Shown: positions 33,257 to 64,000 of the stretch, piece after piece | Layout: every line of letters begins with the position of its first letter | Numbering within the stretch: position 1 is the stretch's first letter | Assembly: GCA_947650365.1 (NCBI GenBank) | Contig: OX393555.1 | Location: forward strand, 80,543,995-80,607,994 | DNA length: 64,000 nt | From: Chamaelirium japonicum | Taxonomy: Eukaryota; Streptophyta; Magnoliopsida; Liliales; Melanthiaceae | Reading direction: 5' to 3' | Notes under the pieces: generated by a model | What the model was told of the DNA's origin: nothing | The model's database searches: none | What the model saw: the letters and a program-made list of their open reading frames with translations, nothing else | Position numbers and translations under genes: made by a program

Positions 33257-33267
33257 CCCATAGAATA

Positions 33268-33298: not shown

Positions 33299-33307
33299 AA
33301 TATACGA

Positions 33308-33323: not shown

Positions 33324-33361
33324 CATGTTTAATGGCTCTCTTTTTCTCCCATCTCACAACA

Positions 33362-39730: not shown

Positions 39731-39764
39731 TTCTCTCTTCTCACTTTATTTTATTACTATGATA

Positions 39765-39884: not shown

Positions 39885-39989
39885 AAGTTTTAGAATTTAG
39901 ATTCCTTTTTACTTCGCACCTATACCCGTGGTGAATGGACTGGAGCAAGACTTCTTCTCTCTTCTCTCTTATTTATCTTCGTTTAAATT

Positions 39990-40160
39990 ATTTAATAATT
40001 TAAAAAATTTATAAATTAAGTTTTTAGTAAAATAATTAATTTAAATAAATAAATTTTTTACATGAAAAATATTTAATATTTTTTTTTAAAAAAAATTAAA
40101 ACATTACAACTGTTATGAGATCGTTCGATCGGATGGCTACCTACCATCGGATCTCTCCCG
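39990..40160 (+). repeat. Major AT-rich module, promoter-proximal fragment
   Basis: An AT core fragment ends with ACAACTGTTATGAGATCGTT, CGATCGGATGGCTACC and CATCGGATCTCTCCC, leading into a telo-box/TATA segment in the normal order. It lies opposite to 39518-39730, so the two fragments form an imperfect inverted pair around a reverse unit. Confidence 0.7.
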
Positions 40161-42294: not shown

Positions 42295-42648
42295 TCAATA
42301 GTATCTTCTCAACGTTATTATGATTATCATATTAATGATACTATAAATTTTTAAATTAAATTAAAATTTTATTTAATTATTAATTAATTTAAATAATTTA
42401 ATAATTAAGTTTTTATTAAAATAATTAATTTATTTAATTATCTAATTATTTAATTAAATTTATTATTTTATTTATTATTATTATTTTATTATTAAATAAT
42501 TAAATTAGATAACTATTTAATTTTTTAAATAATTAAATAAAGAAATAATGATTTAATTATATAATTAATTTATTAATTTATTTTATTAGTTATTTCTTTA
42601 ATTATTATCTTATTTTTAAATAATTAAATAATTAGTTAATTATTTAAG
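42295..42648 (+). repeat. Major AT-rich module, distal part
   Basis: It starts TCAATAGTATCTTCTCAACG, runs through about 330 bp of AT core (AAATAAAGAAATAATGATTT) and stops at TTATTTAAGCGAAGTAAGAG. The core order matches 43518-43900 and 53311-53640. Confidence 0.7.
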
Positions 42649-43517
42649 CGAAGTAAGAGAACGTAGAGATAAATAATAGTGCCCCACCCTAAAGAATATT
42701 TATAAAAACATTGATTATTTCAAGTTTATAATTAAAAAAGAGAGAGCCGTCAAACGTGCCTCACCCTAAAGGGGTCCTATATTATTTATTGAGAAGTTAA
42801 GTTTTGTAATTTAGACTCCTTCTTACTTCACACTACTTCACACCTATGCCCGTGGCTAATGGATTGGAGCAGGACTTCTTCACTCTTCTCTTTTTGTTTT
42901 TCTATCTATTTTCTAGTGTCTAGTCAGCTAGCCTCAACATATTCGTACTGATAACGTGTTGTGAGATGGGAGCAAGACTTCTTCTTTCTCCTCTCTTCAT
43001 TTATCTCTCTATTCTCTTCTCTCTTCTTCTCTTTATTCTGAGGAGTTTTAGAATTTAGATTCCTTCTTACTTCACACCTATACCCGTAACTAATGAACTG
43101 AAGCAGGATTTCTTCTTTCTTCATTTATCTCTTCATTTTCTTATCTCTTCTTCTCGCTCTTCTGTCTTCGTTTCTCTCTCCGTTTTCTTGCGACTGGTCA
43201 ATTGGGCTCGATATGTTCATGCTGATAGCGTATTATGATGTGGGAGAAAGAGAGAGCCGTCAAACGTGCCCCACTCTAAAACGATAATATATTATTTAGA
43301 GGGTAAGCTTACTTAGGGCCTAAACAATCTTTGGGAAACCCTAATCCATGTGAGAGATCCAACGGTGGACAGCCATCTTTCTTACTTCACACCTATACCC
43401 GTGGTGAATGGACTAGCGTAGGACGTCTTCTCTCTTCTCTCTTCTTCTCTCTCTTATTATCAGATCGCTATCCACCGTCGAATCTCTCCCATTAATTAAG
43501 GCTGACCAGTCATCTTT
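42649..43517. repeat. Mosaic of short units
   Basis: Partial units on both strands, with CTTCACACTACTTCACACC (a short local doubling) near 42830 and AT-module edge remnants at about 43348-43376 and 43455-43500. No gene is seen. Confidence 0.6.
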
Positions 43518-44221
43518 ACATTTTTATGATTATCAAAGTAATGTTACTATATTTTTTAAATTAAATTAATTATTTATTTAATTTTTATTATTTAAATTAA
43601 TTTAATAATTTAAATAATTAAGTTTTTAGTACAATAATTAATTTATTTAATTATTAAATTATCGAGTTATTAAATTAAATTTATTATATTATTTATTTAT
43701 TATTATTATATTATTAAATAATTCAATTAGGTAACTATTTAATTGTTTTAATTATTAAATAAAGAAATAATGATTTAATTATATAATTAATTTATTAATT
43801 CATTTTACTAATTATTATTTATTTTTAATTTATTAAATATTAAGTTAATTATTTAAATATTTAAATATTTATTTAGTGAAGAAATATATTAAATAGATTA
43901 TTTAGTTATTGAATAACTAATTTGTTAATAAATTGAATAAATATTTAAATAAATAAGTAATTAAAGAAATAATGATTATTATAGTAATGTTACTATAATT
44001 TAAAAAAATTAAACTATAATAATTTAATAAATAGGGTTTCTATAATATTTCTTCGTATATGATTTAAATTAATCATCTATTTAATATTAAATAAATTATT
44101 TATTTTACTAAACTTAATAATTAAATTATTTAATTATTTAATAAAAAATTAAATAAATAATTTAATTAAAAAAATTATAGTAACATTACTATGATAATCA
44201 TAATAACATTGAGATGATACT
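43518..44221. repeat. Composite AT-rich module with two distal ends
   Basis: It begins with a distal terminus in + orientation (TTTTTATGATTATCAAAGTA) and ends with the same terminus in - orientation (ACTATGATAATCATAATAAC, ATTGAGATGATAC). The two halves are therefore joined near their middles, giving a head-to-head composite lacking both promoter-proximal edges. The middle (43960-44100) holds TAGGGTTTCTATAATATTTC, a weak trace of a promoter segment. Confidence 0.6.
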
Positions 44222-46221
44222 TTTTTAATTAAATTATAAATGAAGAGAGAAGATAGGAGAAGTCCTGCTCTAGTCTATTTATAGGATAAGCTTACTAATT
44301 AAGAGAATTAATTATATAATTTTATTTAGAAAATATTAATTAAAATAAATAAAATAACTAAAATAAATATGTAACCTCCTATCTCACAATACGTTATCAG
44401 TACGAACTTGTCGAGCCCAGCCAACCAGTCACAAGAAAAAGAAGAGAGAAACAAAAACAGAAGAGATAAAAGAAGAGAGAATAGAACGGATAGATAAACG
44501 AAGAGAGAAGAAAGAAGAAGATCTGCTCCAGTCCATTAGTCACGGGTATAGGTGTGAAGTAAGAAGGAATCTAAATTCCAAAACTCCACTTCTTAATAGT
44601 ATCATCTCAACGTTATTATGATTATCATATTAAATTCTCTTCTCTCTTTGTTTTAATATAATGATTAATTTAATTAAAAAAATTATAGTAGTATTATTAT
44701 GATATATGATTATTTAACTAATTATAACGTTGAGGTGAACGAACAGAAATGGAAGAAAAAAGACTTATATTTAATTGATTACAGGTAGGAGAGATTTAAA
44801 TATGGATTAGGTATGAACATTATTTATAAGAGAGATTTAAATTTTGATTAATTGATTGCAGGACTTCTTCTCTCTTCTCTCTTCTCTCTTCGACATGTTC
44901 GTGCTGATGACGTATTATAAGATAATTTAACATTTAACAATTCTCTTTATGTTTATATCTCCGTTCTTTTCTCGCTTCCTCCCACCTCATAACACGTTAT
45001 TAGCACGAATATGTCGAGCCCAACCTACCAGTCACAAGAAAACAGAAAGAGAAACGAAGACAAAGGGAGAGAAGAAGAGAGAAGAGAACGGAGAGATAAA
45101 CGAAGACAGAAAAGAGAGAAGAAGATAGAAAAGAACAGAGAGATAAACAAAGATAGAAGAGAGAAGAAGTCTTACACCAATCCATTCGCCACAGGTATAG
45201 GTATGAAGTAAGAAAGATGGCTATCCATCGTCGAATCTCTCTTATGGATTAGGGTTTTCTATAGATTGCTTAGGCCCTAAGTAATCTTACCCTATAAATA
45301 ATATATGACTCCTTTAGTGTGGGGCACGTTTGATAGCCCTCTCGTTCTCCCATCATACAATACGTTATCAGCACGAACATGTTGAGCCGAGTCGACTAGT
45401 CAAAAGAAAACAGGGAAAGAAACGAAGACAGAAGTAGAGTTTTGGAATTTATATTTTTTCTTACTTCACACCTAAACCTATGGAGAATGGACTCGAACAG
45501 GACTTCTTCTCTCTTCTATCTTCGATTATCTCTCCGTTCTCTTCTCTCTTCTTCTCTCTCTTCTATCTTCGTTTCTCTCTCTGTTTTCTTGTGACTGGTC
45601 GGCTGGGCTCGACATGTTCATGCTGATAATGTATTATGAGAAGAGAGAAGAAGAGAGAAGTAAGAAGGAATCTAAATTCCAAAACTCCACTCCTCAGTAT
45701 TTATATGTCCCCTTTATAGTGGCACACGTTTGACGGCTCACTCTTTCTCACATCTCACAACACGTTTTCAGTACTAACATATCAAGCCTAGCCAACTAGT
45801 CACAAGAAAACAGAGAGAGAAATGAAGACAGAAGTGGAATTTTGGAATTTAAATTCCTTCTTACTTCACACCTATACTTCATACGGATATAGGTATGAAG
45901 TAAGAAGGAATCTAAATTCCAAAACTCCACAGAAGAGAGAGAAGAAGAGAGAAGAGAGAACGGAGAGAAACAAAGACAGAAAAGAGAAAAGAAAAAAGAA
46001 AAGAACCAAGAGATAAACAAAGATAGAAGAGAGAAGAAGTCCTATTCTATTCCATTGGCCACGGGTATAGGTATGAAGTAAAAAGGAATCTAAATTCCAA
46101 AAGTCCACTTATGTCTTCATTTCTCTCTCTGTTTTCTTACGACTGGTCAGTTGGGCTCGACATATTCGTGCTGTTAATATGTTATGAGATGAAAAAAAAA
46201 GAGAAGAGAACGGAGACATAA
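44222..46221. repeat. Mosaic of units and degraded joints
   Basis: Forward units with primer-like sites lie near 44390, 44996 and 45365. A half foldback at 44598-44720 is followed by a degraded stretch, 44720-44860, where AGAGATTTAAAT occurs twice. Tail blocks in opposite directions meet at about 45840-45935. No gene is seen. Confidence 0.6.
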
Positions 46222-46392
46222 ATATGCCAAGCTTAAATTAAATGAAATTTATTAAACACGTTATTAATAATTTAATTTAATAAATAATATAATAGATATG
46301 TAAATAATTTGAATTTATTTCAAAAAGTAATCAACTAGTTATTTAATTATTTTTTTAGAATTAATAATATAAAGTAAACTAATTAAATAAAT
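46222..46392. repeat. AT-rich stretch unlike the other modules
   Basis: The sequence contains CCAAGCTTAAATTAAATGAA, TTATTAAACACGTTATTAAT and AAAAAGTAATCAACTAGTTA. I do not see the edges of the major, minor or foldback modules. It may be a diverged fragment or an unrelated insertion. No coding capacity is seen. Confidence 0.45.
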
Positions 46393-46785
46393 ATTGAGAA
46401 AGAAGAGAGAAGAAGTCCTGCTCCAGTCCATTCGCCACGGGTGTAGGCGTGAAGTAAGAAGGAATCTAAATTCCAAACCTCTACAGAAGAGAGAGAAGAA
46501 GAGAGAAGAGACTAGAGAGATAAATAAAGAGAAAATAGAGAAGAAGTCTTGCTATAGTCAATTGGCCACAGGTATAGGTATGAAGTAGGAAGGAATCTAA
46601 ATTCCAAAAGTCCACAAAAGAGAAAGAAGAAGAAAAAAAAACAAAGAGAGAAATGAAGACAGAAGAGAGAGAAGAAGAGAGAAGAGAATGGAAAAATAAA
46701 TGAAGAGAGAAGAAATCATGCTCCTGTCCATTGGTCACGGGTATAGGTGTGAAGTAAGAAGGAATCTAAATTCCAAAACTTCACT
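46393..46785 (+). repeat. Forward units before a paired AT-fragment structure
   Basis: Three consecutive forward GA-tract/tail blocks are joined through CCAAACCTCTACAGAAGAGA-type joints. None carries a promoter segment. Confidence 0.65.
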
Positions 46786-46985
46786 TCGCAATAGTATCAT
46801 CTCAACATTATTATGATTATCGTAGTAATATTACAATAATTTTTTTTAATTAAATTAAATATTTATTTAATTATTAAATATTTTAAATAATTTCATAATT
46901 AAGTTTTTAGTAAAATAATTAATTAAATATATTTATTATAGTATAAATAGTTATTGAATTATCTAAATAAAATAAACTATTGTTA
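46786..46985 (+). repeat. Major AT-rich module, distal fragment
   Basis: It starts GCAATAGTATCATCTCAACA then TTATTATGATTATCGTAG, followed by about 150 bp of AT core. It pairs with the inverted fragment 47206-47421. Confidence 0.65.
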
Positions 46986-47205
46986 AAGTTGAGTTTTTGA
47001 AATTTACATTCCTCCTTACTTCATACCTATACCCGTGGTCAATGGACTGGAGCATGACTTCTTCTTTCTTCATTTATCCCTCTGTTCTCTTCTCTCTTCT
47101 TTTCTATTTTCTGTGGAGTTTTGGAATTTAGATTCCTACTTACTTCATACCTATACCCGTGGCGAATGGACTGGAGCAGGACTTCTTCTATCTTCTCTCT
47201 TAATA
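46986..47205 (-). repeat. Reverse units enclosed between inverted AT fragments
   Basis: Two reverse tail/CT blocks, each with a GGAGTTTTGGAATTTAGATT- or GAGTTTTTGAAATTTAC-type start, sit between the two inverted AT fragments, forming the loop of an imperfect inverted repeat. Confidence 0.6.
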
Positions 47206-47421
47206 TTTATTTTATTAGTATACTTTATATTATTAATATTAAAAAAATAATTAAATAACTAAATAATTAAATAATTAAATTAATTAATTATTTTACTAAA
47301 AACTTAAATATTTAAATTATATAATTATTAAATTATATAAGTATTAAATTATTTAATAATTAAATAAATAATTATAGTAACATTACTATGATAATCATAA
47401 TAACGTTGAGATGATACTATT
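47206..47421 (-). repeat. Major AT-rich module, distal fragment (inverted partner)
   Basis: AT core, then ACATTACTATGATAATCATA, ATAACGTTGAGATGATACTA, then the reverse unit GGAGTTTTGTAATTTAG. It is the inverted partner of 46786-46985. Confidence 0.65.
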
Positions 47422-48889
47422 GAGAAGTGGAGTTTTGTAATTTAGATTCTTTCTTACTTCACACCTATACCCGTGGCGAATGGACTAGAGCAAAACTTCT
47501 TCTCTCTTCTCTCTTCGTTTATCTTTTCGTTCTCTTCTCTCCTCTTCTTTCTCTTCTATCTTCGTTTATCTCTATGTTTTCTTCTCTCTTCTATCTTTGT
47601 TTCTCTTTCTCATAGATTGTTTAGGCCCTAAGTTAGCTTATGCTATAAATAATATACAACCCCTTTAGAATGGGGCACTTTTGATGGCTCTTTCTTTCTC
47701 CCATCTCAAAATACGTTATCAATATGAACATATCAAGCCCACCCGACCAGTCATAAGAAAACAGAAAGAGAAACAAAGATAGAAGAGAGGGAAGAAGAGA
47801 GAAGAGAACAAAGAGAGGGGACAGAAGAAGATAGAAGAGAACAGAGAGATAAATAAAGAGAGAAAAGAGAAGAAGTCCTGCTCCAATCCATTGGCCAGGG
47901 GTATAGGTGTGAAATAAGAAGAAATCTAAATTCCAAAACTCTACTTCTATATATTTATACGACCCCATTAGGGTAAGGCTCGTTTGACGGCTATCTCTTT
48001 CTCCCATCTCATAACACGTTATCAGCACGAACATATTGAGCCCAGCCGACCAGTCACAAGAAAATGGAAAGAGAAACGAAGACAGAAGTAGAGTTTTGGA
48101 ATTTAAATTTCTTCTTACTTCATACCTATACTCGTGGTTAATGGACTGGAGTAAGACTTCATCTCTCTTCTCTCTTCGTTTATCTCTCTATTCTCTTTTC
48201 TCTTTTTCTCTCTTCTGTTTTAGTTTCTATCTCCGTTTTCTTATGACTGGTCGGTTGGGCTCGACATATTCATGCTGATAGTATGTTCTGAGATGGAAGA
48301 AAAAGAGAGTCGTCTAATATGCCCCACTCTAAAGGTGTCATATATTATTTATATGATAAGTATTATGAGATGGGAGAATAAGAGAGCCGTCAAACCTGCC
48401 CCACCCTAAAGAGGTCGCATGAATATTGAGAAGTAGAGATTTAGAATTTAGATTCCTTCTTACTTTACACCTATACCTATGGCCAATGGACTGGAGCAGG
48501 ACTTCTTCTCTCTTCTCTTTTCGTTTATCTCTCTGTTATCTTCTCTCTTCTTCTCTTTCTTCTGTCTTCGTTTCTCTCTCTGTTTTTTTCACAATCATAT
48601 ATTAGTTAAATAACATAGAGCAAGACTTTTTCTCTCTTCTCTCTTTGTTTATCTCTTTATTCCCTTCTCTCTTCTCATAACACGATATCAATACGAACAT
48701 ATCGAGCCTAGCTGACCAGTCACAAGGAAACAGAGACAAAAACGAAGACAGAAGAGAGAGAAGAAGAGAAAAGAGAATAAAGAGTTAAACGAAGAGATAA
48801 GAGAGAAGAAGTCCTATTCCACTCCATTGGCCATGGGTATAGCTGTGAAGTAAGAAGGAATCTAAATTCCAAAACTCCACTTTTCAATA
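47422..48889. repeat. Mosaic of units
   Basis: Forward and reverse units, with a promoter segment near 47610-47670 and a rare doubled block AAAGAGAGGGGACAGAAG near 47810. A short AT stretch (CACAATCATATATTAGTTAA) lies at about 48588. No gene is seen. Confidence 0.65.
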
Positions 48890-51800
48890 TTTATACGACC
48901 CTTTTAGGGTAAGGCATATTTGATGGCTTTCTCTCTCTCCCATCTTACAACACGTTATCAGCACGAACATATCGATCCCAACCGACCAGTCACAAGAAAA
49001 CGAAGAGAGAAACAAAGACAGAATAGAGAAGAAGAAAGAAGAGAACAAAGAAATAAACAAAGATAGAAGTGAGAAGAATTCCTGCTCCAGTCCAAAACTG
49101 CATAGAAGAGAAAAAAAAAAAAAAAGAGAACAGAGAGATAAATAAAGAGAGAAGAAATCCTACACCAGTCCATTGGCCACAGGTATAGGTGTGAAATCTA
49201 AATTCAAAAACTCTACTTCTGTCTTCATTTCTCTCTCCGTTTTCTTGGGACTGGTCAGATAGGCTCGACATGTTCGTGCTGATAATCTGTTGTGAGATAG
49301 GACAAAGAGAGACCCATCAAATGTGCCCCACCATAAAGGAGTCGTATAAATATTAAGAAGTGGAGTTTTAGAATTTAGATTCCTACTTACTTCATACCTA
49401 TACTCGTAGCCAATGGACTGGAGTAGGGCTTCTTCTCTCTTCTCTCTTTATTTACCTCTCCATTCTCTTCTCTTTTCTTCTCCCTCTTCTTCTCTCTTTT
49501 GTCTTTGTTTTTTTCTCTGTTTTCTTGCGACTGGTCGGCTGGGCTCGATATGTTCGTGCTGATAATGTGTTGTGAGAAGAGATAAGAAGAGAGAAGAGAA
49601 CGGAGAGATAAACGAAGAGAGAATAGAGAAGAAGTCATGCTCTAGTCCATTCGTCATGGGTATAGGTATGAAGTAAGAAGGAATCTAAATTCCAAAACTC
49701 TATTTCTCAATATTATAATTAAATCTCCACGTTCTCTTCTTTCTTCTCCCATGGATTAGGATTTCCCATAGATTGCTTAGGCCCTAAGTAAGCTTACCTT
49801 ATAAATAATATACGACCCCTTTAGGGTGGGGCTTATTTGATGGCTCTCTCTTTCTCCTATCTCATAACACGTTATCAGCACGAATATATCGAGCCCAGCC
49901 GATCAGTCGTAAGAAAATGGAGAGAGAAACGAATACAGAGGAGAGAATAAGAGAGAAGAGAACAGAGATATAAACGAAGATAGAAGAGAGAAGAAGTCCT
50001 GCTCAAGTCCATTGACCACGGGTATAGGTGTGAAATAAGAAGGAATCAAAATTCCAAAACTCCACTTCTCAATAAAGTAATTAAATCTTTCTATTTTCTT
50101 CTCTCTTCTCCCATAGATTAGGGTTTCCAATAGATTACTTAGGCCCTAAGCAAGCGTACCTTATAAATAATATACGGCCCCTTTAGGGTGGGGCATATTT
50201 GAGGGCGCTCACTTTCTCCTATCTCATAATACATTATCAGCACGAACATGTCGAGCCCAGCCGACCAATTACAAGAAAATGGAGAGAGAAATGAAAACAA
50301 AAAAGAGAGAAGAAAAGGGAAGAGAACGAAGAGATAAACAAAGAGAGAAGAGATAAGAAGTCCTGCTCTAGTCGATTGGCCACAAGTATAGGTGTGAAGT
50401 AAGAAGGAATCTCAATTCCAAAACTCCACAGAAGAGAGAGAAGAGAATAGAGAGATAAATAAAGAGAGAATAGAGAAGAAGTCCTGCTCCAGTTCATTGG
50501 CCACGGGTATAGGTGTGAAGTAAGAAGGAATATAAATTTAAAAACTCCACTTCTGTCTTCGTTTCTCTCTCCATTTTCTTACGACTAGTCGGATGGGCTC
50601 GACATGTTCGTGCTGATAACGTGTTATAAGATGGGAGAAAGAGAAAGTATCAAACGTGCCCTACCTTAAAGGGGTCATATATTATTTATAGGGTAAGCTT
50701 ACTTAGGGCCTAAGCAATCTATGAGAAACCCAAATCCATGGGAGAAGATAGAAAAGAACGGAGAAATAAAATAAAATAGAAGAGAGAAGAAGTCCTGCTC
50801 TAATCAATTGGCCACGAGTATAGGTGTAAAGTTAGAAAGAATCTAAATTCCAAAACTCCACTTATGTCTTCATTTTCTCTCTGTTTTTTTGTGACTGGTC
50901 GGCTGGGCTTGACATGTTCATGCTGATAATGTCTTGTAAGATGGGAGAAAGAGAGAGTCAAACGTTCCCCATCCTAAGGGGGTCGTATATTATTTATAAG
51001 GTAAGATTACTTAGGGCCTAAGCAATCTATTGGAAACCCTAATCCATATGAGAGATAAAGAAAAGAATGGAGAGATTTAATTATATTATTGAGAAATAAA
51101 ATTTTGGAATTTAGGTTCCTTCTTACTTCGTACCTATATCCGTGGTAAATGGACATAAGCATGACTTCTTCTCTCTTATCTCTTCGTTTATCTTTCTGTT
51201 CTCTTCTCTCTTCTTCTCTTTTCTCACAACACGTTATCAGCATGAACATATCGACCCTAACCGACCAGTCGTAAAAAATCGAAGAGATAAACGAAGATCG
51301 AAGAGAGAGAAGAAGAGAGAAAAAAACGGAAAGATAAATGAAGAGAGAAGAGAGAAGAAGACTTGCTCCAGTATATTGGCCACGGGTATAGCCAGTGTAT
51401 TGGCCACGGGTATAGGTGTGATGTAAGAATGAATCTAAAATCCAAAACTCCACTTCTCAATATTTATACGACCCCTTTAAGGTAGGGCACGTTTGACGGC
51501 TCTATCTTTGTCTCATCTCACAATACATTACCAGCATGAATATTTCGAGCTTAACCAACCAGTCACAAGAAAACGGAGAGATAAACAAAGACAGAAGAGA
51601 TAGAAAAAGAAAGAAGAGACCAGAGAGATAAACAAAGAGAGAAAAGAGAAGAAGTCCAGCTCTATTCCATTGACCACGGTATAGGTGTGAAGTAAGAAAG
51701 AATCAGATAACGTGTTATAAGATGGGAGAAAGAGAGAGCCGTCAAACATGCCCCATCCAAAATGGGTCGTATATTATTTATGGTGTAAGCTTACTTAGGG

Positions 51801-52508
51801 CCTAAGCAATCTATAGAAAACCCTAATACATGGAAGAAGAGAGAAGAGCATGGAGAGATTATAATTATATTATTAAGAAGTGGAGTTTTGGAATTTAGAT
51901 TCCTTCTTACTTCACACCTATACCCATGGCAAATGGATTAGAGCAGGACTTCTTCTCTCTTCTCTCTTCGTTTATCTCTCTGTTCTCTTCTCTCTTCTTC
52001 TCTCTTCTCACAACACGTTATCAGCACGAATATGTCGAGCCCAGCCGACCAGTCATAAAAAAACAAAGAAAAAATGAAGATAGAAGTAAGAGAGAAATAA
52101 AGATAGAAGAGAAAGAAGAAGAGGGAAAAGAATTGAGAGATAAACGAAGAGAGAAGAGAGAAGAAGTCCTGCTCTAGTCTATTGGCCACGGGTATAGGTG
52201 TGAAGTAGAAAGGAATCTAAATTCCAAAACTCCATAGAAGATTGTGAAGAAGAAAGAAGAAACAATGAGATAAATAAAGAGAGAAGAAGTCTTACTCTAG
52301 TTCATTATCCATCGTCGGATCTCTCCCCTGGAATAGGGTTTCCCATAGATTGTTGAGGCCCTAAGTAAGCTTACCCTATAAATAATATAAAGGGTAGGGC
52401 ATATTTGACGGCTCTCCCTTTCTCCCATCTTACAACACGTTATCAGTATAAACATATCGAGCCTAACCGTTAAATAATTCATTTATCTCTCCCTTCTCTT
52501 CTCTCTTC
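48890..52508. repeat. Segmental duplication D1, far copy
   Basis: 48890-51450 matches 2880-4995, and 49827-52508 matches 1-2670, so this copy spans both relations. Shared markers include CCCACCATAAAGG near 49329 (near 3268 in copy 2), GCGCTCACTTTCT near 50205, AAGTCCAGCTCTATTCCATT near 51653 and TATTTATGGTGTAAGCTTAC near 51774. The doubled text CCAGTGTATTGGCCACGGGT near 51390 is a small local tandem not seen in the near copies. Its right end abuts the palindrome. Confidence 0.85.
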
Positions 52509-53087
52509 TCATAAACATGCCCCTTTAGGATAGGGCATATTTGACGGCTCTCTCTTTCTCCCATCTCATAATACTTTATCAGTACGAACCTGTCGAGCCC
52601 AGCCGACCAGTTATAAGAAAATAGAGAGAGAAACGAAGACAAAAAAGAGAGAAGAAGAGAAAAGAGAACAGAGAGATAAACAATAAGAGAAGAGAGAAGA
52701 AGACCTGCTCCAGTCTATTGGCCACGAGTATAGGTGTCAAATAAGAAGGAATCTAAATTCCAAAACTCTACTTCTCAATAATATAATTAAGTCTCTTCGT
52801 TCTCTTCTTTCTTCTCCCATTGATTAGGGTTTTCCATAGATAGCTTAGGCCCTAAGTAAGCATACTCTATAAATAATATATAACCCCTTTAGATGGGGCA
52901 CGTTTGATAACTTTCTTTTTCTTCCATCTTACAATATGTTATCAGCACGAATATATCGAGCCCAGTCGATCAATCACAAGAAAACTAAGAGAGAAACGAA
53001 GACAAAAGAGAGAGAAGAAGAGAGCAAAGAACAGAGATATAAACGAAGATAGAAGAGAAAATAAGTCCTACTCTAATTCATTGCCAT

Positions 53088-53182
53088 CCGATCGAACGAT
53101 CTCATAACAGTTAAATTGTTTTAAAATTTTTCAAAGAAAAATATAAATTAATTTTGTTAAAAAAAATTCATTGATAACCGAT
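53088..53182 (-). repeat. Short remnant of the AT module edge (left arm copy)
   Basis: GCCATCCGATCGAACGATCT ... AAAATTCATTGATAACCGAT. It is the inverted partner of 58590-58692. Confidence 0.65.
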
Positions 53183-53310
53183 TGAGAGAAGAAGAGAGAA
53201 GAGAATGATGAGATAAACGAAAAGATAAGAGAGAAGAAGTCCTACTCTAGTCCATTCGCCACAGGTATAGGTGTGAAGTAAGAAGAATCTAAATTCCAAA
53301 ACTCTACTTC

Positions 53311-54203
53311 TCAATAGAAAAATCCCAAAGTTATTATGATTATCATAGTAATGTTATTATAATTTTTTTAATTAAATTAATTATTTATTTACTTATTAAA
53401 TAATTTAATAATTATATTTTTGGTAAATTAATTAATTTATTTAATTACTTAATTATCTCGTTATTTAATAAAATTAATTATTTTATTTATTTATTATTAG
53501 TATATTATTAGATAATGATTTAATTATATATTTAATTTATTAATACTTTTTATTAGTTATTTCTATAATTATTATTTTATTTTAAAATAATTAAATAATT
53601 AGTCAATAATTTAAATAGTTAAAAACTTATTTAGTTAAAACTATATTAAACAGATAATTTGTTTATAGGAATAAGTAATTTAATTATTAAATTAATTTAT
53701 AGTTAAATAAACAATATTTTAAATTAATTATTATATAATTAAAAAATTATTTTATTAAATTATAAAATATTAAATTAAATAAAAAAATTAATTATTTAGT
53801 TAAGTAAAAAAATAAAATAATAATTTAATAACTATTTACTTATTATTTAAATAATTAGTTAATTTTTTGAATATATAATTAATAAAATATTTTTTTAAAT
53901 AACTTAATATTTTTTAAATAATCAAATAAATATTTATTTATTTTAATATTTAAATAATATATAAATTATTTAAATAATTTATTTATATAGATAATTAAAT
54001 ATTTTTTTAATTATTTAATTATTTAACTATTTAATTTATTAAACTAATTAAATTAATTAAATAATAGGAAGTAAAGAAGGAAGATGAGGCACACCTGAAT
54101 TTTTTGCTTTAGAATAATTTATATTTTTCTTTAAAAAAATTTAAAACAGTACAAATGCTATGAGATCGTTCGATCGGATGGCTATCCATCGTCGGATCTC
54201 TCC
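53311..54203 (+). repeat. Major AT-rich module in promoter orientation (left arm)
   Basis: It begins TCAATAGAAAAATCCCAAAG and ends GCTATGAGATCGTTCGATCG, GATGGCTATCCATCGTCGGA. The telo-box and TATA segment follow at 54206-54260 (here CTACAAATAATA in place of CTATAAATA). It is the inverted partner of 57568-58463. Confidence 0.8.
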
Positions 54204-55830
54204 CATGGATTAAGGTTTCCCATAGATTGCTTAGGCTCTAAGTAAGCTTAACCTACAAATAATATACGACCCCTTTGGGGTGGGGCACGTTTGACGTCTC
54301 TACTCCACTTCTTAATAATATAATTATATCTCTCAGTTTTCTTCTATCTTCTCCTATGGATTAGGGTTTTGCATAGATGTCTTAGGTCCTAAGTAAGCTT
54401 ACCCTATAAATAATATACGACTCCTTTAGGGTGGGGCACGTTTGATGACTCTCGCTTTCTCTAGTCTCACAACAAGTTATCAGCACGAACATATCGAGCC
54501 CAGCCGACCAGTCGTAAGAAAACGGAGAGAGAAACAAAGACAGAAGTGGAGTTTTAGAATTTAGATTCTTTCTTAGTTCATACTTATACCCATGGTCAAT
54601 GGACTAGAGCATGACTTCTTCTCTCTTATCTCTTTGTTTATCTCTTCGTTCTCTTTCCTCTGTCTTTGTTTCTCTCTCTATTTTCTTACGACTGGTCGAT
54701 TGGGCTCGACATGTTCGTACTGATAACGTGTTGTGAGATTGGAGAAAGAAAGAGCCATCAAATATGCCCAACCCTAAAAGGGTTGTATAAATATTGAGAA
54801 ATTGAGATTTGGAATTTAGATTCCTTCTTACTTCACACCTATACTCATGGCTAATGAACTGGAGCAGGATTTCTTCTCCCTTCGTTTATTTTTTCATTCT
54901 CTTCTCTCTTCTTCTCTCTTCTGTCTTTGTTTCTTTCTTCGTTTTCTCTTCTCTCTTCTTCTCTCTCTTTTGTTTTTGTTTCTCTCTCCGTTTTCACTTG
55001 ACTGGTAGGCTGGGCTCAATATGTTCATTCTGATAACGTGTTATGAGGTGGAAGAAAGAGAGAGTAGTTAAACGTGTCCTACCCTAAAGGGGTCATATAA
55101 ATATTAAGAAATGAAGTTTTGTAATTTAGATTCTTTCTTACTTCACACCTATACCCATGGCCAATGGACTGGAGCAGGACTTATTCTCTTTTCGTACTGA
55201 TAATATTACTATAATTTTTTTAATTAAATTAATTATTTAATTAAAACAAAGAGAGTTTTGGAATTTACTATAATAATTATAATAACTTTGAGATGATGCT
55301 ATTGAGAAGTGGAGTTTTGGAATTTAGATTTATTCTTACTTCACACTTATACCTATGGCGAATTGACTGGAGCAGTATTTCTTTTCTCTTCTCTCTTTGT
55401 TTATCTCTCCGTTCTTTTCTCTTTTCTATCTTCGTTTCTCTCTTCGTTTTCTTGTGACTGGTCAGCTGGGCTCGACATGTTCATGCTGATAATGAATTGT
55501 GAGATGGGAAAAGAGAGATCCAACAAACATGCCCCACCCTAAAGGGGTCGTATTTATTTATAGGGCAAGCTTACTTAAGGCCTAAGCAATCTATGGGAAA
55601 CCCTAATCCATAGGAGAATTGAGAAGAGAATGGAGATATTTAATTATATTATTGAGAAGTGGAGTTTTGAAATTTAGATTCCTTCTTACTTCACTCCTAT
55701 ACCAGTGGCGAATGGACTGGAGTAAGACTTTTTTTCTCTTCTCTCTTTAATATTCTCTCCGTTCCCTTCTCTCTTCTTCTCTCTTCTCACAACACGTTAT
55801 CAGCACGAATGTGTCGAGCCCAACCGATCA

Positions 55831-55969
55831 GTCACAAGATAACAATGAGCCGTCAAACATGCCCCACCCTAAAGGGGTACTATTAATATTGAGAAGTGGA
55901 GTTTTGGAATTTAGATTCCTTTTCACTTCATACCTATACCCGTAGCCAATAGACACGTTCGTACTGATC
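55831..55969. repeat. Palindrome spacer
   Basis: About 130 bp between the arms. From 55841 it matches 26128-26235 in direct orientation (CGTCAAACATGCCCCACC then GGGGTACTATTAATATTGAG), so it is the first part of D3 copy B. It ends CAATAGACACGTTCGTACTG, where the sequence jumps to a point about 0.4 kb further on in D3 copy A; the right arm begins at that same jump. Confidence 0.75.
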
Positions 55970-56469
55970 GGCTGGGCTTGACACGTTCGTGCTGATAACG
56001 TGTTGTGAGAAGAGAGAAGGAAACGGAGAGAATATTAAAGAGAGAAGAGAAAAAAAGTCTTACTCCAGTCCATTCGCCACTGGTATAGGAGTGAAGTAAG
56101 AAGGAATCTAAATTTCAAAACTCCACTTCTCAATAATATAATTAAATATCTCCATTCTCTTCTCTATTCTCCTATGGATTAGGGTTTCCCATAGATTGCT
56201 TAGGCCTTAAGTAAGCTTGCCCTATAAATAAATACGACCCCTTTAGGGTGGGGCATGTTTGTTGGATCTCTCTTTTCCCATCTCACAATTTGTTATCAGT
56301 ATGAACATGTCGAGCCCAGCTGACCAGTCACAAGAAAACGAAGACAGAAAAGAGAAAAGAACGGAGAGATAAAAAAAGAGTGAAGAGAAAAGAAATACTG
56401 CTCCAGTCAATTCGCCATAGGTATAAGTGTGAAGTAAGAATAAATCTAAATTCCAAAACTCCACTTTTC

Positions 56470-56578
56470 AATAGCATCATCTCAAAGTTATTATAATTAT
56501 CATAGTAAATTCCAAAACTCTCTTTGTTTTAATTAAATAATTAATTTAATTAAAAAAATTATAGTAATATTATCAGTA
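56470..56578 (+). repeat. Foldback-derived short AT element, D3 copy B
   Basis: TCAATAGCATCATCTCAAAG ... ATTATAGTAATATTATCAGT. It is the partner of 27195-27300; the inverted partner in the left arm is at about 55195-55303. Confidence 0.65.
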
Positions 56579-57567
56579 CGAAAAGAGAATAAGTCCTGCT
56601 CCAGTCCATTGGCCATGGGTATAGGTGTGAAGTAAGAAAGAATCTAAATTACAAAACTTCATTTCTTAATATTTATATGACCCATTTAGGGTAGGACACG
56701 TTTGACTGCTCTCTCTTTCTTCCACCTCACAACACGTTATTAGAATGAACATATTGAGCCCAGCCTACCATTCAAGTGAAAACGGAGAGAGAAACAAAAA
56801 CAAAAGAGAGAGAAGTAGAGAGAAGAGAAAACGAAGAAAGAAACAAAGACAGAAGAGAGAAGAAGAGAGAAGAGAATGAAAAAATAAACGAAGGGAGAAG
56901 AAATCATGCTCCAGTTTATTAGCCATGAGTATAGGTGTGAAGTAAGAAGGAATCTAAATTCCAAATCTCAACTTCTCAATATTTATACAACCCTTTTAGG
57001 GTTGGGCATATTTGATGGCTCTTTCTTTCTCCAATCTCACAACACGTTATCAGTACGAACATGTCGAGCCCAATCGACCAGTCGTAAGAAAATAGAGAGA
57101 GAAACAAAGACAGAGGAAAGAGAACGGAGAGATAAACAAAGAGATAAGAGAGAAGAAGTCATGCTCTAGTCCATTGACCATGGGTATAAGTATGAACTAA
57201 GAAAGAATCTAAATTCTAAAACTCCACTTCTGTCTTCGTTTCTCTCTCCGTTTTCTTATGACTGTTCGGCTGGGCTCGATATGTTCGTGCTGATAACTTG
57301 TTGTGAGACTAGAGAAAGCGAGAGTCATCAAACGTGCCCCACCCTAAAGGAGTCGTATATTATTTATAGGGTAAGCTTACTTAGGACCTAAGACATCTAT
57401 GGAAAACCCTAATCCATAGGAGAAGATAGAAGAGAACTGAGAGATATAATTATATTATTAAGAAGTGGAGTAGAGACGTCAAACGTGCCCCACCCCAAAG
57501 GGGTCGTATATTATTTGTAGGTTAAGTTTACTTAGAGCCAAACCAATCTATGGTAAACCTTAATCCA

Positions 57568-58463
57568 TGGGAGAGATCCGACGATGGATAGCCATCCGAT
57601 CGAACGATCTCATAGCATTTGTACTATTTTAAATTTTTTTAAAGAAAAATATAAATTATTCTAAAGCAAAAAATTCAGGTATGCCTCATCTTCCTTCTTT
57701 ACTTCCTATTATTTAATTAATTTAATTAGTTTAATATATTAAATAGTTAAATAATTAAATAATTAAAAAAATATTTAATTATCTATATAAATAAATTATA
57801 TAAATAATTTATTTATTATTTAAATATTAAAATAAATAAATATTTATTTGATTATTTAAAAAAATATTAAGTTATTTTAAAAAATATTTTATTAATTATA
57901 TTTTCAAATAATTAACTAATTATTTAAATAATAAGTGAATAGTTATTAAATTATTATTTTATTTTTTTACTTAACTAAATAATTAATTTTTTCATTTAAT
58001 TTAATATTTTATATTTTAATAAAATAATTTTTTAATTATATAATAATTAATTTAAAATATTGTTTATTTAACTATAAATTAATTTAATAATTAAATTACT
58101 TATTCCTATAAACAAATTATCTGTTTAATATAGGTTTAACTAAATAAGTTTTTAACTATTTAAATTATTGACTAATTATTTAATTATTTTAAAATAAAAT
58201 ATTAATTATAGAAATAACTAATAAAAAGAATTAATAAATTATTTATATAATTAAATCATTATTTAATAATATACTAATAATAAATAAATAAAATAATAAA
58301 TTTCATTAAATAACTAGATAATTAAGTAATTGAATAAATTAATTAATTTACCAAAAATATAATTATTAAATTATTTAATAAGTAAATAAATAATTAATTT
58401 AATTAAAAAAATTATAATAACATTACTATGATAATCATAATAACTTTGGGATTTTTCTATTGA
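57568..58463 (-). repeat. Major AT-rich module, D3-B and palindrome right arm
   Basis: The left edge is GAGAGATCCGACGATGGATA and the right edge is ACTATGATAATCATAATAAC, TTTGGGATTTTTCTATTGAG. The right edge shares the GGGATTTTTCTATTGAG variant with the left-arm copy (CTCAATAGAAAAATCCC) but not with 28281-29200, which supports a recent arm-to-arm origin. Confidence 0.8.
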
Positions 58464-60395
58464 GAAGTAGAGTTTTGGAATTTAGATTTTTCTTACTTCA
58501 CACCTATACTTGTGGCGAATGGACTAGAGTAGGACTTCTTCTCTCTTATCTTTTCGTTTATCTCATCATTCTCTTCTCTCTTCTTCTCTCAATCGGTTGT
58601 CAATGAATTTTTTTTAATAAAATTAATTTATATTTTTCTTTGAAAAATTTTAAAACAATTTAACTGTTATGAGATCGTTCGATCGGATGGCAATGAATTA
58701 GAATAGGACTTATTTTCTCTTCTATCTTCGTTTATATCTCTGTTCTCTGCTCTCTTCTTCTCTCTCTTTTGTCTTCGTTTCTCTTTCAGTTTTCTTGTGA
58801 TTGATCGACTGGGCTCGATATATTCGTGCTGATAACGTATTGTAAGATGAGAGAAAAAGAGAGTTGTCAAACGTGCCCCATCTAAAGGGGTCATATATTA
58901 TTTATAGGGTATGCTTACTTAGGGCCTAAGCTATCTATGGAAAACCCTAATCCATGAGAGAAGAAAGAAGAGAACGAAGAGACTTAATTATATTATTGAG
59001 AAGTAGAGTTTTGGAATTTAGATTCCTTCTTATTTGACACCTATACTCGTGGCCAATAGACTGGAGCAGGTCTTCTTCTCTCTTCTCTCATTGTTTATCT
59101 CTCTGTTCTCTTTTCTCTTCTTCTCTCTTTTTTGTCTTCGTTTCTCTCTCTATTTTCTTATAACTGGTCGGCTGGGCTCGACAGGTTCGTACTGATAAAG
59201 TATTATGAGATGGGAGAAAGAGAGAGCCATCAAACATGCCCTATCCTAAAGGGGTCGTATAAATATTGAAAAATAGAGTTTTGGAATTTAGATTTTTTCT
59301 TACTTTATACCTATACCCGTGGCCAATGGACTAGAGCAGGACATCGTCTCTCTTCTGTCTTTGTTTCTCTTTTTGTTTTTTGATGACTGGTTGGCTGGGC
59401 TAGACATGTTCGTGCTGATAATGTTTTGTGAGATAGAAGAAAGAGAGACCCGTCAAATATGCCCTATCCTAAAGGGGTCGTATTTTATTTATAGGGTATA
59501 CTTACTTAGGGTCTAAGCAATCTATGGTAAACCCTAATCCATGGGAGAAGAGAGAAGAGAACGGAGAGATTTAATTATTTTATTAAGAAGTAGAGTTTTA
59601 TAATTTAGATTTCATCTTACTACACATCTATACCCATGGCGAATAGACTAGAGTAGGACTTCTACTCTCTTCTCTATTCGTTTCTCTTTATTTTCTTCTT
59701 TCTTCTTCTCTCTCTTCTATCTTCGTTTCTCTTTCTGTTTTCTAATAACTGGTCGGTTGGGCTCGACATATTCGTACTGATAACGTGTTGTAAGATGGGA
59801 GAAAGGGAGAGCCATCAAACATGCCCCATCCTAATTAGATTTATTCTTATTTTACACCTATACCCATGGCCAATAGGTTGGAGCAGGACTTCTTCTACTT
59901 CTCTCTTCGTTTATCTCCCTATTCTCTTCTTCTTTTTTTTCTCTCTTCTATCTTCCTTTCTCTCTCTGTTTGCTTATGACTGGTCGGCTGGGCTTGACAT
60001 GTTCGTGTTGATAACGTATTGTGTGATAGAAAAAAAGAGAGCCGTTAAATGTGCCCTACCCTAAAGGGGCCATATAAATATTAAGAAGTAGAGTTTTAGA
60101 ATTTAGATTATTTCTTACTTTACACTTATACCTGTGGTGAATGGACTGGAGTAGGACTTCTTCTCTCTTTATTTATCTCTCTGTTCTATTCTTTCTTCTT
60201 CTCTCTCTTTTGTCTTCGTTTCTCTCTTTGTTTTTTTATGACTGGTCGGTTGGGCTCGATATATTCGTGCTGATAATGTGTTGTGAGATGGAAGAAAGAG
60301 AGAGCCATCAAATGTGCTCTACCCTAAAGGGGTCGTATATTATTTATAGGGTAAGCTTACTTAGGGCATAAGAAATCTATGGGAAACCCTAATCC

Positions 60396-60915
60396 ATAGG
60401 AGAGATCCGACGGTAGACAGCTATTCGATCGAATGATCTCATAACAGTTGTAATATTTTAAATTTTTTAAAGAAAAATATTAAATATTTTTAAAGCAAAA
60501 AATTCGGGTGTGCCTCATCTTCCTTCTTTACTTCCTATTATTTAATTAATTTAATTAGTTTAATAAATTAAATAGTTAAATAATTAAATAAATATTTAAT
60601 TATCTATATAACTAAATATTTAAATTATTTATATAATTTATTTAATATTTTAAATATTAAAATAAATAAATATTAATTTGATTATTTAAAAAATTTAAGT
60701 TATTTAAAAAAATATTTTATTATTTATATATTCAAAAAACTAACTTATTATTTAAATAATAAGTAAATAGTTATTAAATTATTATTTTATTTTATTACTT
60801 AATTAAATAATTAATTTTTTATTTATTTTAATTAATATTTTATAATTTAATAAGAAAAATTTAATTAATTAATTATATAATAAATTTATTAAAATTATTA
60901 TTTTTTTAACTATAT
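60396..60915 (-). repeat. Major AT-rich module, partial, D3-B
   Basis: It starts GAGAGATCCGACGGTAGACA and stops at TTTTTTTAACTATATCTTCT, the same truncated form as 31281-31785, so the truncation predates the D3 duplication. Confidence 0.75.
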
Positions 60916-63049
60916 CTTCTTTTCTCTCTTATGTATTCGTTTCTCTTTCTGTTTTCTTGTGGCTGGTCGGTTGGGCTCGATATGTTTGTGCTATAATGTG
61001 TTGTGAGATAGAAGAAAGAGAGAGCCATCAAACATGCCCTCCTCTAATTAGATTTCTTCTTACTTTACACCTATACCCGTGGCCAATAGGTTGGAGCAGG
61101 ACTTCTTATATCTTCTCTCTTCGTTTATCTCCCTGTTCTCTTTTCTCTTTTTTTCTCTTTCCTATCTTCCTTTCTCTCTCTGTTTTCTTATGACTGGTCG
61201 GCTGGGCTTGACATGTTCGTGTTGATAACGTATTTTATTTATAGGGTAAGATTACTTAGGGCCTAACCAAACTATGGAAAACCTAAATCCATGGGAGAGA
61301 TCCGACGATGGACAGCCATCCGATCGAACATGCCCCACCCTAAAGGGGTCGTATTAATCATTTATTTAAATAATTATTAAATTAATTCTCTTAATTAGTA
61401 AGCTTACCTTATAAGTATTTAATTATATATAATTGATTATCACCATGGGTATAGATGTGAAGTAAGAAGGAATCTAAATTCCAAAACTCCACTTCTCAAT
61501 AGTATCATCTCAACGATATTATAATTATCATAGTAATATTACTATAATTTTTTTAAATAAATTATTTATTTATTTAATTACTAAATAATTTATTAATTTA
61601 AATAATTTAATAATTAAAATGTGTTGTGAGATGGGAGAAAGTGAGAGCCGTCAAACTTGCTCAACCCTAAAGAGGTCGTATAATATAATTAAATCTCTCC
61701 GTTCTCTTTTCTTTTCTCTTATGGATTAGGGTTTCCCATAGATTGCTTAGGCCCTAAGTAAGCTTACCCTATAAATAATATACTACCCCTTTAGGGTGGG
61801 GCACGTTTATAGCTCTCTCTTTCTCTCATCTAATAACATTTATCCTATAAATAATATTTGACCCCTTTAGGGTGGGGCACTTTTGATGGCTCTCTCTTTC
61901 TCCCATCTCACAACACATTATCAGCACGAATATATCGAGCCCAGCCTACCAGTCGCAAGAAAATGGAGAGAGACAAAGATAGAAGAGAAGATTTGGAATT
62001 TAGATTCCTTCTTACTTCATACCTATAACTGTGGTCAATGGACTAGAGCAGGACTTCTTCTCTCTTCTCTTTTCTCTTTTTATTTATCTCTCTATTCTTT
62101 TCTTTTTTCTTCTCTAAAATCTCTCCGAAGAGAGAAGAGAAAAGAAGTCCTTCTCCAATCCATTAGCCATGGGTACAGGTGTGAAGTAAAAAGGAATTTA
62201 AATTCCAAAACTTTATAGAAGTGACAGAAAAAGAGAGAAGAGAACGAAGAGATAAACAAAGACAGAAGAGAGAGATACGATTGGTCGGTTGGGCTCGATA
62301 GTAAGAAGTGGCACACCAAAATTGCTTAGGCCCTAAGTTCAAATATTAAGAGATATACTGTCGGATATCTCCTATAGATTAGGGTTTTCCATAGAATACT
62401 TAGGCCCTAAGTAAGCATACCCTATAAATAATATACGACCCCTTTAGGGTGGGGCATGTTTAATGGCTCTCTCTTTCTCCCATCTCACAACATATTATCA
62501 GTACAAACATGTCGAGCCCAGTGACCAGTCGCAAGAAAACGGAGAGAGAAACAAAGACAAAAGAGAGAATAAGAAAGAAGAGAATAGAGAGATAAACTAA
62601 GATAGTAGAGAGAAGAAGTCATGTTCTAGTCCATTGGCCATGCGAATAGGCATAAAGTAAGAAGGAATCTAAATTCCAAAACTCCACTTCTCAATAATAT
62701 AATTAAATCTCTCCGTTCTTTTTTTTCTTCACCCATAGATTAGGGTTTTTTATAGATTGCTTAGGCACTAAGTAAGCTTACCCTATAAATAATATACGTC
62801 CCTTTTAGGGTGGGGCACGTTTGATGGCTCTCTTTCTCTCATCTCACAACACGTTATTAGCACGAACATGTCGAGCCCAGCTGACCAGTCACAAGAAAAC
62901 GGAGAGAGAAACGAAGACAGAAGAGAGAGAAGATAAGAGGAGAACGGGAAGATAAACGAAAAGAGAAGAGAAAAGAAGTCATACTCCAGTCCATACGCCA
63001 TGGGTATAGGTATGAAGTAAGAAGGAATCTAAATTTCAAAGCACCACTT

Positions 63050-63193
63050 CTCAATAGTATCTTCTCAGCGTTATTATGATTATCATTATAATGTTACTAT
63101 AATTTTTTTAATTAAATTAATCATTTGATTAAAACGAAGAGAGAACAGAATTTACTATAATAATCGTAATAACGTTGAGATGATATTATTGAG
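63050..63193. repeat. Foldback (MITE-like) element, D3-B copy
   Basis: CTCAATAGTATCTTCTCAGC at the left and AACGTTGAGATGATATTATT, GAG at the right form inverted ends. It is the same element as 33921-34064. Confidence 0.65.
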
Positions 63194-64000
63194 AAAACTC
63201 CACATCTAATAATAGAATTAAATCTCTCCATTCTCTTCTATCTTCTCCCATGGATAATGTTTTCCCATGGATTGCTTAGGCCCTAAGTAAGCTTACCTTA
63301 TAAATAATATACAACCCCTTTAGGGTGGGTTACGTTTGACGGCTCTCTCTTTCTCCCATCTCACAACACGTTATTAGCACGAACATATCAAGCCCATCCG
63401 ACCCATCATAAGAAAATGGACAGAAAAACAAAGACAGAAGTAGAGTTTTATAATATAGATTCCTTCTTACTTTACACTTATACCCATGGCCAATTGACTG
63501 GAGCATGACTTCTTCTCTCTTCTCTCTTCATTTATCTCTCTATTTTCTTCTCTCTTTTCTATTTTTGTTAAACTCTACTTCTTTTCTCAATAAATGAAGA
63601 GAGACATAAAGACAAAAGAGAGAGAAGAAGAGAGAAGAGAACGGAGAGATAAACGAAGAGAGAAGAGAGAAGAAGTCCTGCTCCAGTCCATTCGCCATGG
63701 GTATAGGTGTGAAGTTCTCTCTTCTATCATCGTTTATCTCTCCATTCTCTTCTCTCTTCTTTTGTCTTCGTTTGTCTCTCTGTTTTTCTTATGACTAGTC
63801 GACTAGGCTCGACATATTCGTGCTGATAATATACTATGAGATGGGAGAATGAGAGAGCCGTCAAATGTGCCCCCCCTAAAGGGATCGTATATTATTTATA
63901 TGGTTACTTAGGGCCTAAGTAATCTATAAGAAACCCTAATCCATGGGAGAAGAGAGAAGAGAATGGAGAGATTTAATTATATTATTGAGAAGTGAAGTTT

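What the first reader, a model, noticed from the sequence alone, without database searches (positions are those of the whole stretch)
52512..59255. Large, recent palindrome with arms of about 3.3 kb and a spacer of about 130 bp
The left arm 52512-55830 is the reverse complement of 55970-59255. Private variants are shared at the outer end (CATAATACTTTATCAGTACG, AACCTGTCGAG), the middle (CTCAATAGAAAAATCCC) and the inner end (CTCCTATACCAGTGGCGAAT). Sampled differences are about 1-3 percent. Such a structure could extrude a cruciform, give hairpin RNA of several kb, and be prone to gene conversion. The arm differences argue against a simple fold-back read artefact.
Basis: seen in the sequence. Interest (0 to 1): 0.75.

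Follow-up and report, generated by a model that had tools for sequence, protein, structure and literature searches.

The report
Core of a giant plant palindrome
The 3.3-kb mirror-image repeat is real and is only the middle of a much larger mirror-image block, roughly 300 kb long, that occurs at many places, several of them near chromosome ends, in what is very probably the genome of the lily relative Chionographis japonica, and its two halves have drifted apart with no copying of one onto the other detected where it was tested.

Summary
The palindrome is real: 52520-55832 is the reverse complement of 55963-59254 at 97.07% over 3314 columns, with a 130-bp spacer. It is not a stand-alone 3.3-kb element. 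It looks short because the left arm lacks about 57 kb at window 52511-52519; beyond that the symmetry resumes. Six probes show blocks with markers in mirror order (G E C F B A | A B F C E G), 213-360 kb between outermost probes, at 8 single-axis places (68 of 68 hits in order; the core itself was listed in 5 of 8). Near the ends of contigs C2 and C4 the inner part forms six axes in a row.

In five C2/C4 palindromes arms cluster by side, not by locus; site patterns for the window copy agree, though its right arm and both C163 arms are unresolved in the tree. So the palindrome most likely formed once and was copied whole. The C4 arms are evenly 98.07% identical over 30.4 kb without long identical runs: no recent arm-to-arm gene conversion there. 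Best reading: a segmental duplication without detected genes in satellite-like DNA, spread by ectopic exchange; formation and spread are inferred.

The parts
52520..55832 (+). Left inner arm of the palindrome; groups with the arm type that faces away from the contig end in the C2/C4 copies
   Evidence: 97.07% reverse complement of 55963-59254; tree position 94/95 and 94/92, just short of the usual threshold; in a four-way alignment 10 sites group by arm, 1 by locus, 2 crosswise
55833..55962 (.). 130-bp spacer, itself a piece of the local repeat family; alike in all seven palindromes compared, once the two C2 copies are turned round
   Evidence: alignment of spacers
55963..59254 (-). Right inner arm; unresolved in the trees
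59255..64000 (-). Right arm continuing outward; its left-arm partner is missing here but present on C4
   Evidence: derived sites of the C7 right arm flank shared with the C4 right arm 21, against 8 and 2 for the alternatives
52511..52519 (.). Deletion junction of the left arm: about 57 kb present in the right arm (C7:80,603,248-80,660,419) is missing here; a few filler bases
   Evidence: alignments on either side; junction letters
35047..52510 (+). Outer left arm, mirror image of C7:80,660,419-80,677,989 outside the window
   Evidence: 97.3-97.9% in three pieces, about 17 kb
26660..37942 (+). Older, diverged direct copy (about 91.5%) of the right arm region; used as outgroup. Its part from 35047 on also belongs to the outer left arm
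42001..44500 (+). Probe F: 40 copies of 2.1 kb or more listed genome-wide, on opposite strands on the two sides of block axes

Best explanation
The 3.3-kb palindrome is the centre of a giant palindromic segmental duplication without detected genes of its own, 312-328 kb between outermost probes in the three blocks where both ends were found and no deletion is known, in satellite-like DNA that is partly subtelomeric. Shown: mirror order of six probes around one axis in 8 blocks; rows of six axes on C2 and C4; in the C2/C4 copies one arm type per side, so that palindrome arose once and was copied whole within and between contigs; even arm divergence on C4; about 57 kb missing from the left arm of the window copy, present in its right arm and on C4. 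Supported but less firmly: the window copy descends from the same palindrome. Inferred: the first palindrome arose by an inverted duplication (fold-back repair or sister-chromatid fusion between inverted copies of the repeat family); copies spread by ectopic exchange or break-induced copying; unequal exchange built the six-fold rows. I think it has no dedicated function and adds to heterochromatin.
For: Arms and spacer. C4 copy with arms of 30.6 kb or more, and C7 asymmetry explained by one deletion (outer probe pairs put the C7 midpoint 28.5 kb from the core axis, half of 57 kb). Probe maps (ordered: 68 of 68 hits in mirror order in 8 blocks). Tree with two arm clades for the five C2/C4 palindromes, each 99/98. 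Derived sites in two C7 right-arm stretches shared with the C4 right arm 32, against 11 and 3 for the alternatives. Spacer alike in 7 of 7 after turning the C2 copies. Young retrotransposon in one arm with a 5-bp target duplication and the empty site on C4. No Pfam family for the left arm read in one frame; the three open frames over 250 codons in 194 kb of C7 all lie in that retrotransposon.
Against: Several blocks are megabases from contig ends (C3 3-6 Mb, C7 4-5 Mb, C2 11 Mb, C10 14 Mb), so 'subtelomeric' fits only part of them. In the tree the window's left arm has support just under the usual mark; its right arm and both C163 arms are unresolved, and by plain identity the window's right arm is closer to its own left arm (98.00%) than to four of the five end-side arms. 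The core was listed in only 5 of 8 single-axis blocks; in C2 near 111.37 Mb and in C163 the probe pairs do not all agree on one axis. The two C3 blocks may be one block duplicated. Outer ends were not reached, so a discrete mobile unit is not excluded. No reads were examined.
Confidence: 0.78

Rival explanations
1. Assembly artefact: fold-back or chimeric contigs, or haplotype copies joined in inverse orientation.
For: The region is highly repetitive; two C3 blocks sit 1,513,352-1,513,354 bp apart in 6 of 7 probe pairs, which may be a false duplication. No reads were available.
Against: C4 arms differ by about 2% evenly; the C7 arms carry a 57-kb deletion and insertions on one side only; the same axis recurs on several contigs with side-specific sites. 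No N in the fetched 194 kb of C7 and 70 kb of C4.
Confidence: 0.04
2. A giant mobile element with very long inverted repeats that transposes as a unit.
For: Same anatomy at many dispersed places; conserved axis and spacer.
Against: No long open frame outside inserted retrotransposons in the C7 and C4 stretches read; homology is still present at the outermost probe, with 91-93% relatives near several contig ends; the C2 and C4 rows mirror each other with respect to the contig ends, as exchange between chromosome ends would give.
Confidence: 0.08
3. A palindrome kept alike by arm-to-arm gene conversion, as on sex chromosomes.
For: Arms are 97-98% alike; the two C163 arms (98.16%) are about as close to each other as to others.
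Against: In five C2/C4 palindromes arms cluster by side, not by locus; 10 sites by arm, 1 by locus, 2 crosswise; even divergence and longest identical run 268 bp against about 355 expected under random placing.
Confidence: 0.03
4. A functional source of hairpin RNA or small RNA that helps silence chromosome ends.
For: Inverted copies of one family throughout; the published subtelomeric satellite CjSat5 carries H3K9me2 in Chionographis japonica (passage seen), if this family is CjSat5.
Against: No transcription data here; the link to CjSat5 is not tested; dispersed inverted repeats would give such RNA without the giant palindrome.
Confidence: 0.1

Closest known systems
Subterminal heterochromatic caps of chimpanzee and gorilla (pCht satellite with segmental-duplication spacers; PMC12926204, passages seen)
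   Same: A duplicated segment of one origin multiplied within satellite at the ends of many chromosomes; ectopic exchange between non-homologous ends is discussed.
   Different: There the segment is about 32 kb inside a simple 32-bp satellite; here the segment is itself a palindrome of about 300 kb built of a complex repeat family, and part of the copies are megabases from the ends.
Willow W-chromosome palindromes W.P1 and W.P2 (PMC7023750, passages seen)
   Same: Large plant palindromes (42.7 kb and over 165 kb) with arms of high identity disrupted by insertions and deletions.
   Different: Those lie in a sex-determining region, carry genes and show limited gene conversion; here no genes were detected, no conversion was seen where tested, and copies lie on several contigs.
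CjSat5, subtelomeric satellite of Chionographis japonica (PMC10264360 and PMC12722358, passages seen)
   Same: Reported at subtelomeres and at the ends of chromosome 2 of this species, where the C2 row lies if C2 is that paper's chromosome 2.
Satellites grown from retrotransposon sequence (Lathyrus, PMC7004042, passages seen)
   Same: Repeat arrays derived from LTR-retrotransposon pieces; the unit here has a TATA-like stretch and an LTR-end-like motif (my reading, recalled, not tested).
   Different: Those are short tandem arrays inside one element lineage that expanded; here complex units in both orientations.

Membership tests
Giant palindrome (inverted segmental duplication) | Two long arms of high identity around a short spacer | tested here: met
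   3.3 kb, 97.07%; C4 arms of 30.6 kb or more
Giant palindrome (inverted segmental duplication) | Mirror order of independent markers around the axis | tested here: met
   68 of 68 hits in 8 blocks, out of 168 main-family hits mapped; the strand convention comes from the C7 and C4 copies, so part of the 10 C7 hits are in order by construction
Gene-converting palindrome (sex-chromosome type) | Arms of one locus closer to each other than to the same arm elsewhere | tested here: not met
   Not met for five C2/C4 palindromes nor in the shared-site counts for the window copy; by identity alone inconclusive for C163 and for the window's right arm
Gene-converting palindrome (sex-chromosome type) | Contains genes kept in the arms | tested here: not met
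   no Pfam match for the left arm read in one frame; no open frame over 250 codons outside the retrotransposon in the C7 and C4 stretches; intron-split genes were not sought
Subtelomeric segmental duplication | Copies at ends of several chromosomes | tested here: inconclusive
   C2 0.27-1.36 Mb and C4 0.28-1.34 Mb from the contig ends; others 3-14 Mb inside
Mobile element with long terminal inverted repeats | Fixed outer ends with target-site duplication | not tested
Breakage-fusion-bridge inverted ladder | Alternating head-to-head and tail-to-tail copies | tested here: met
   C2 and C4 rows alternate in strand across six axes each; some expected hits are not in the capped lists
Breakage-fusion-bridge inverted ladder | Tail-to-tail joins are themselves fold-back axes | not tested
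   those stretches could not be fetched
CjSat5 | Sequence match to the published monomer | not testable with these tools
   no consensus in the passages read; supplementary tables not readable here

The most novel reading that the evidence does not exclude
In this plant, whose chromosomes attach to the spindle along their whole length, giant fold-back palindromes can form and persist because an inverted duplication at a chromosome end does not create a chromosome torn between two centromeres. The block is then a polar, self-spreading unit: it passes between chromosome ends keeping its orientation toward the end, and its inner palindrome multiplies into rows of six. The related monocentric Chamaelirium luteum should lack such palindromes.
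Probability: 0.18. Interest if true: 0.75.

Novelty: new variant of a known kind. Interest (0 to 1): 0.55.

Why it matters
Large palindromes are best known from sex chromosomes, where gene conversion keeps their arms alike. Here is a family of palindromes of about 300 kb at several places in a plant genome; in the copies tested the arms evolve separately while whole palindromes are copied within and between chromosomes. That allows a test of how palindromes form, persist and spread without conversion, and of whether holocentric chromosomes tolerate inverted duplications better than monocentric ones. It also warns that a short palindrome seen in a window may be the core of a far larger structure.

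Tried and rejected
A stand-alone palindrome of 3.3 kb with true ends at 52520 and 59254: rejected, since on C4 the symmetry runs on for 30 kb or more and on C7 one deletion explains the left end. RNA families: none in the window at the gathering threshold. A protein-coding origin: none found. Arm-to-arm conversion: rejected for the core and the C4 arms. Centromere satellite of 23 or 28 bp: in the 194 kb of C7, among tandem repeats of period 18-33, only one 28-bp row of 2.4 copies and two 19-bp rows inside the inserted retrotransposon. A ginger origin of the genome was guessed; a literature search for it was empty and the contig lengths then pointed elsewhere.

Rows dropped before the counts: five hits at 93% (C36, C80, C43 twice, C5); two at 93-94% (C43, C3:93.70 Mb); twenty-one at 91-93%; and the shorter or weaker rows. 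Of the 168 hits mapped (A 20, B 29, C 35, E 24, F 40, G 20), 68 lie in the 8 single-axis blocks; the rest lie in the C2 and C4 rows (38 and 41), C10 (13), a half block on C3 (4), and C1, C164, C255 (1, 1, 2). One A hit (C7, minus) was added from window coordinates since one search did not list it, which shows that the lists are lower bounds, as the tool says. The core probe A was listed in 5 of the 8 single-axis blocks, at 4 of 6 axes on C2 and at 4 of 6 on C4.
Full report
OBSERVATION. Self-comparison of the window finds 55963-59254 as the reverse complement of 52520-55832: 97.073%, 3314 columns, 74 mismatches, 3 gap openings. The spacer is 55833-55962. The window as a whole is a mosaic of one repeat family on both strands: a 21-bp motif matches 100 times and a 30-bp TATA-like motif 51 times (up to 3 mismatches), with none in shuffles. 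Rfam gives nothing at the gathering threshold and the left arm read in one frame matches no Pfam family.

WHERE. The window is C7:80,543,995-80,607,994 of a genome of 1,518,659,071 bases in 3253 contigs. A plastid rbcL is present; its best solved relatives are entries 1wdd and 5wsk, which I recall as rice and wheat. The twelve longest contigs sum to 1090.67 Mb (my addition) and the eighth is 81,106,678 bases. A published assembly of the holocentric lilioid Chionographis japonica has 12 scaffolds of 1090.73 Mb in total with N50 81.11 Mb; its primary assembly has 3786 contigs and 1,526,137,861 bp (PMC10264360, passages). I take the genome to be that species (NCBI name Chamaelirium japonicum).

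THE REAL SIZE. A search with the left arm listed 18 further copies of 2.4 kb or more, twelve of them as six plus/minus pairs about 135 bp apart (17 candidates were scored, so this is a lower bound). On C4 the copy centred near 94,000,700 has arms of at least 30.6 kb, to the limit of what I fetched. On C7 the left arm stops matching at window 52520, and from 52510 leftward it matches the right arm again, 57 kb further out, at 97.3-97.9%. So the window's palindrome looks short only because the left arm lacks about 57 kb; since both C4 arms carry the first part of that stretch, a deletion on C7 is the simpler reading. Window 26660-37942 is an older direct copy of the right arm region (about 91.5%).

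BLOCKS. Six probes (A the left arm; B, C, E, F, G stretches from C4, C7 and the window) were mapped over the genome. Of the main-family hits, 168 were ordered (dropped rows are listed in Tried and rejected). In 8 single-axis blocks (two on C2, two on C3, two on C7, C163, C207) 68 of 68 hits stand in mirror order, G E C F B A then A B F C E G, with 213-360 kb between outermost probes. The strand convention comes from the C7 and C4 copies, so part of the 10 C7 hits are in order by construction, and the two C3 blocks may be one block duplicated. The core probe A was listed in 5 of the 8 (both C3, C163, C7 near 80.6 Mb, and one side on C2 near 111.38 Mb). In C2 near 109.92 Mb and in C207 the probe pairs agree on the axis within 1 kb. 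In C163 they spread over 333-351.5 kb, and in C2 near 111.37 Mb the core lies some kb from the midpoint of the four outer pairs, so those blocks are uneven. In the window's block three outer pairs put the midpoint near 80,627 kb and the core pair near 80,598.5 kb, as a 57-kb loss from one arm requires. Near the start of C2 (0.27-1.36 Mb) and the end of C4 (93.56-94.62 of 94.90 Mb) the outer probes E and G occur once at each end and six axes lie between them; C10 (59.13-59.86 Mb) has two axes. The C4 axes are 137-164 kb apart; measured C2 spacings are 163-175 kb and, for the last, about 132 kb (my arithmetic). In outline the C2 and C4 rows are mirror images with respect to their contig ends.

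ORIGIN AND COPYING. A tree of 14 inner arm segments of about 1.37 kb from seven palindromes plus an outgroup puts the arms of the five C2/C4 palindromes that face away from the contig end in one clade and those that face the end in another, each 99/98; the C4 94.137-Mb and C2 0.776-Mb copies are nearest to each other in both arms, 99.71% and 99.49%. The window's left arm joins the away-facing clade with 94/95, just under the usual mark; its right arm and both C163 arms are unresolved. By plain identity the window's right arm is closer to its own left arm (98.00%) than to four of the five end-facing arms, and the C163 arms are 98.16% alike. With full arms (10 rows, only one sure end-facing arm among them) the window's left arm has 94/92. 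In the four-way core alignment 10 sites group by arm, 1 by locus, 2 crosswise. In two stretches outside the core the C7 right arm shares 21 and 11 derived sites with the C4 right arm, against 8 and 3 uniting the two C4 arms and 2 and 1 uniting C7 with the C4 left arm. The spacer is alike in the seven palindromes aligned, once the two C2 copies are turned round, while the older copy in the window leaves it after about 14 bp. The simplest reading: one palindrome arose, its arms diverged, and whole palindromes were copied.

NO CONVERSION SEEN. The C4 arms are 98.07% identical over 30,435 aligned positions, 97.0-98.9% in 1-kb steps; the longest identical run is 268 bp, where random placing of the differences would give about 355. 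Recent conversion tracts are therefore not visible there. The divergence corresponds to very roughly one to two million years at substitution rates that I recall; not tested.

LATER CHANGES. A retrotransposon lies in the C7 right arm and not at that place on C4: 753-bp repeats 99.73% alike, CTTCT on both sides, the empty site in C4, with reverse transcriptase, RNase H and integrase domains in one open frame. A second pair of 1608-bp direct repeats at 98.6% lies nearby. These insertions and the deletion speak for real, independently ageing arms.

MECHANISM. Shown: symmetry, whole-block copying among the C2/C4 palindromes, independent arms there. Inferred: formation by fold-back or sister fusion within inverted repeats of the family; spread by ectopic exchange between chromosome ends; growth of rows by unequal exchange or bridge cycles. 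I see no sign of a dedicated function. Cruciforms and hairpin RNA were not tested.

COMPARISON. Nearest in behaviour are the subterminal caps of chimpanzee and gorilla, where a duplicated segment multiplied inside satellite at chromosome ends (PMC12926204, passages). Nearest in shape are the willow W palindromes (PMC7023750, passages), which carry genes and show conversion. For this species CjSat5 is reported as subtelomeric, with H3K9me2 (PMC10264360, passages), and as enriched at the ends of chromosome 2 (PMC12722358, passages); whether it is this family is untested. In PMC10264360 the find function counted 'palindrom' once (the short centromere monomers) and 'inverted' and 'segmental' not at all; in PMC12722358 it counted none of 'palindrom', 'inverted' and 'segmental dupl'. 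In what was listed I saw no report of giant palindromes in this plant.

VERDICT. Observation confirmed; interpretation partly supported; the thing is bigger and of another kind than first thought: a new variant of a known kind, the palindromic segmental duplication.

Noticed in passing
G000:C3 95.36-95.58 Mb and 96.87-97.09 Mb: Two blocks repeat with an offset of 1,513,352-1,513,354 bp in 6 of 7 probe pairs (the seventh 1,513,290): a recent copy or a false duplication in the assembly.
   Followed up: no
G000:C1 105,031,018-105,052,468: Interstitial telomere repeats, first on one strand then on the other, deep inside a chromosome-size contig (listing capped).
   Followed up: no
C7:80,625,177-80,638,195 (outside the window): Young retrotransposon with long terminal repeats, reverse transcriptase and integrase domains, in the right palindrome arm of C7 and absent at that place on C4.
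   Followed up: partly
C7:80,612,479-80,617,523 (outside the window): A pair of 1608-bp direct repeats 98.6% alike, probably another long-terminal-repeat element in the same arm.
   Followed up: no
C3 99.71, C5 0.42, C6 0.42-0.44, C7 0.44, 1.13 and 85.41-85.44 Mb: Older relatives (91-93%) of probe G within about 1.1 Mb of contig ends, on C6, C7 and C44 in inverted pairs about 27 kb apart.
   Followed up: no
window 26660-37942 against 55963-64000 and beyond: A direct duplication with a 29.3-kb offset, about 91.5% identical, so probably older than the palindrome.
   Followed up: partly
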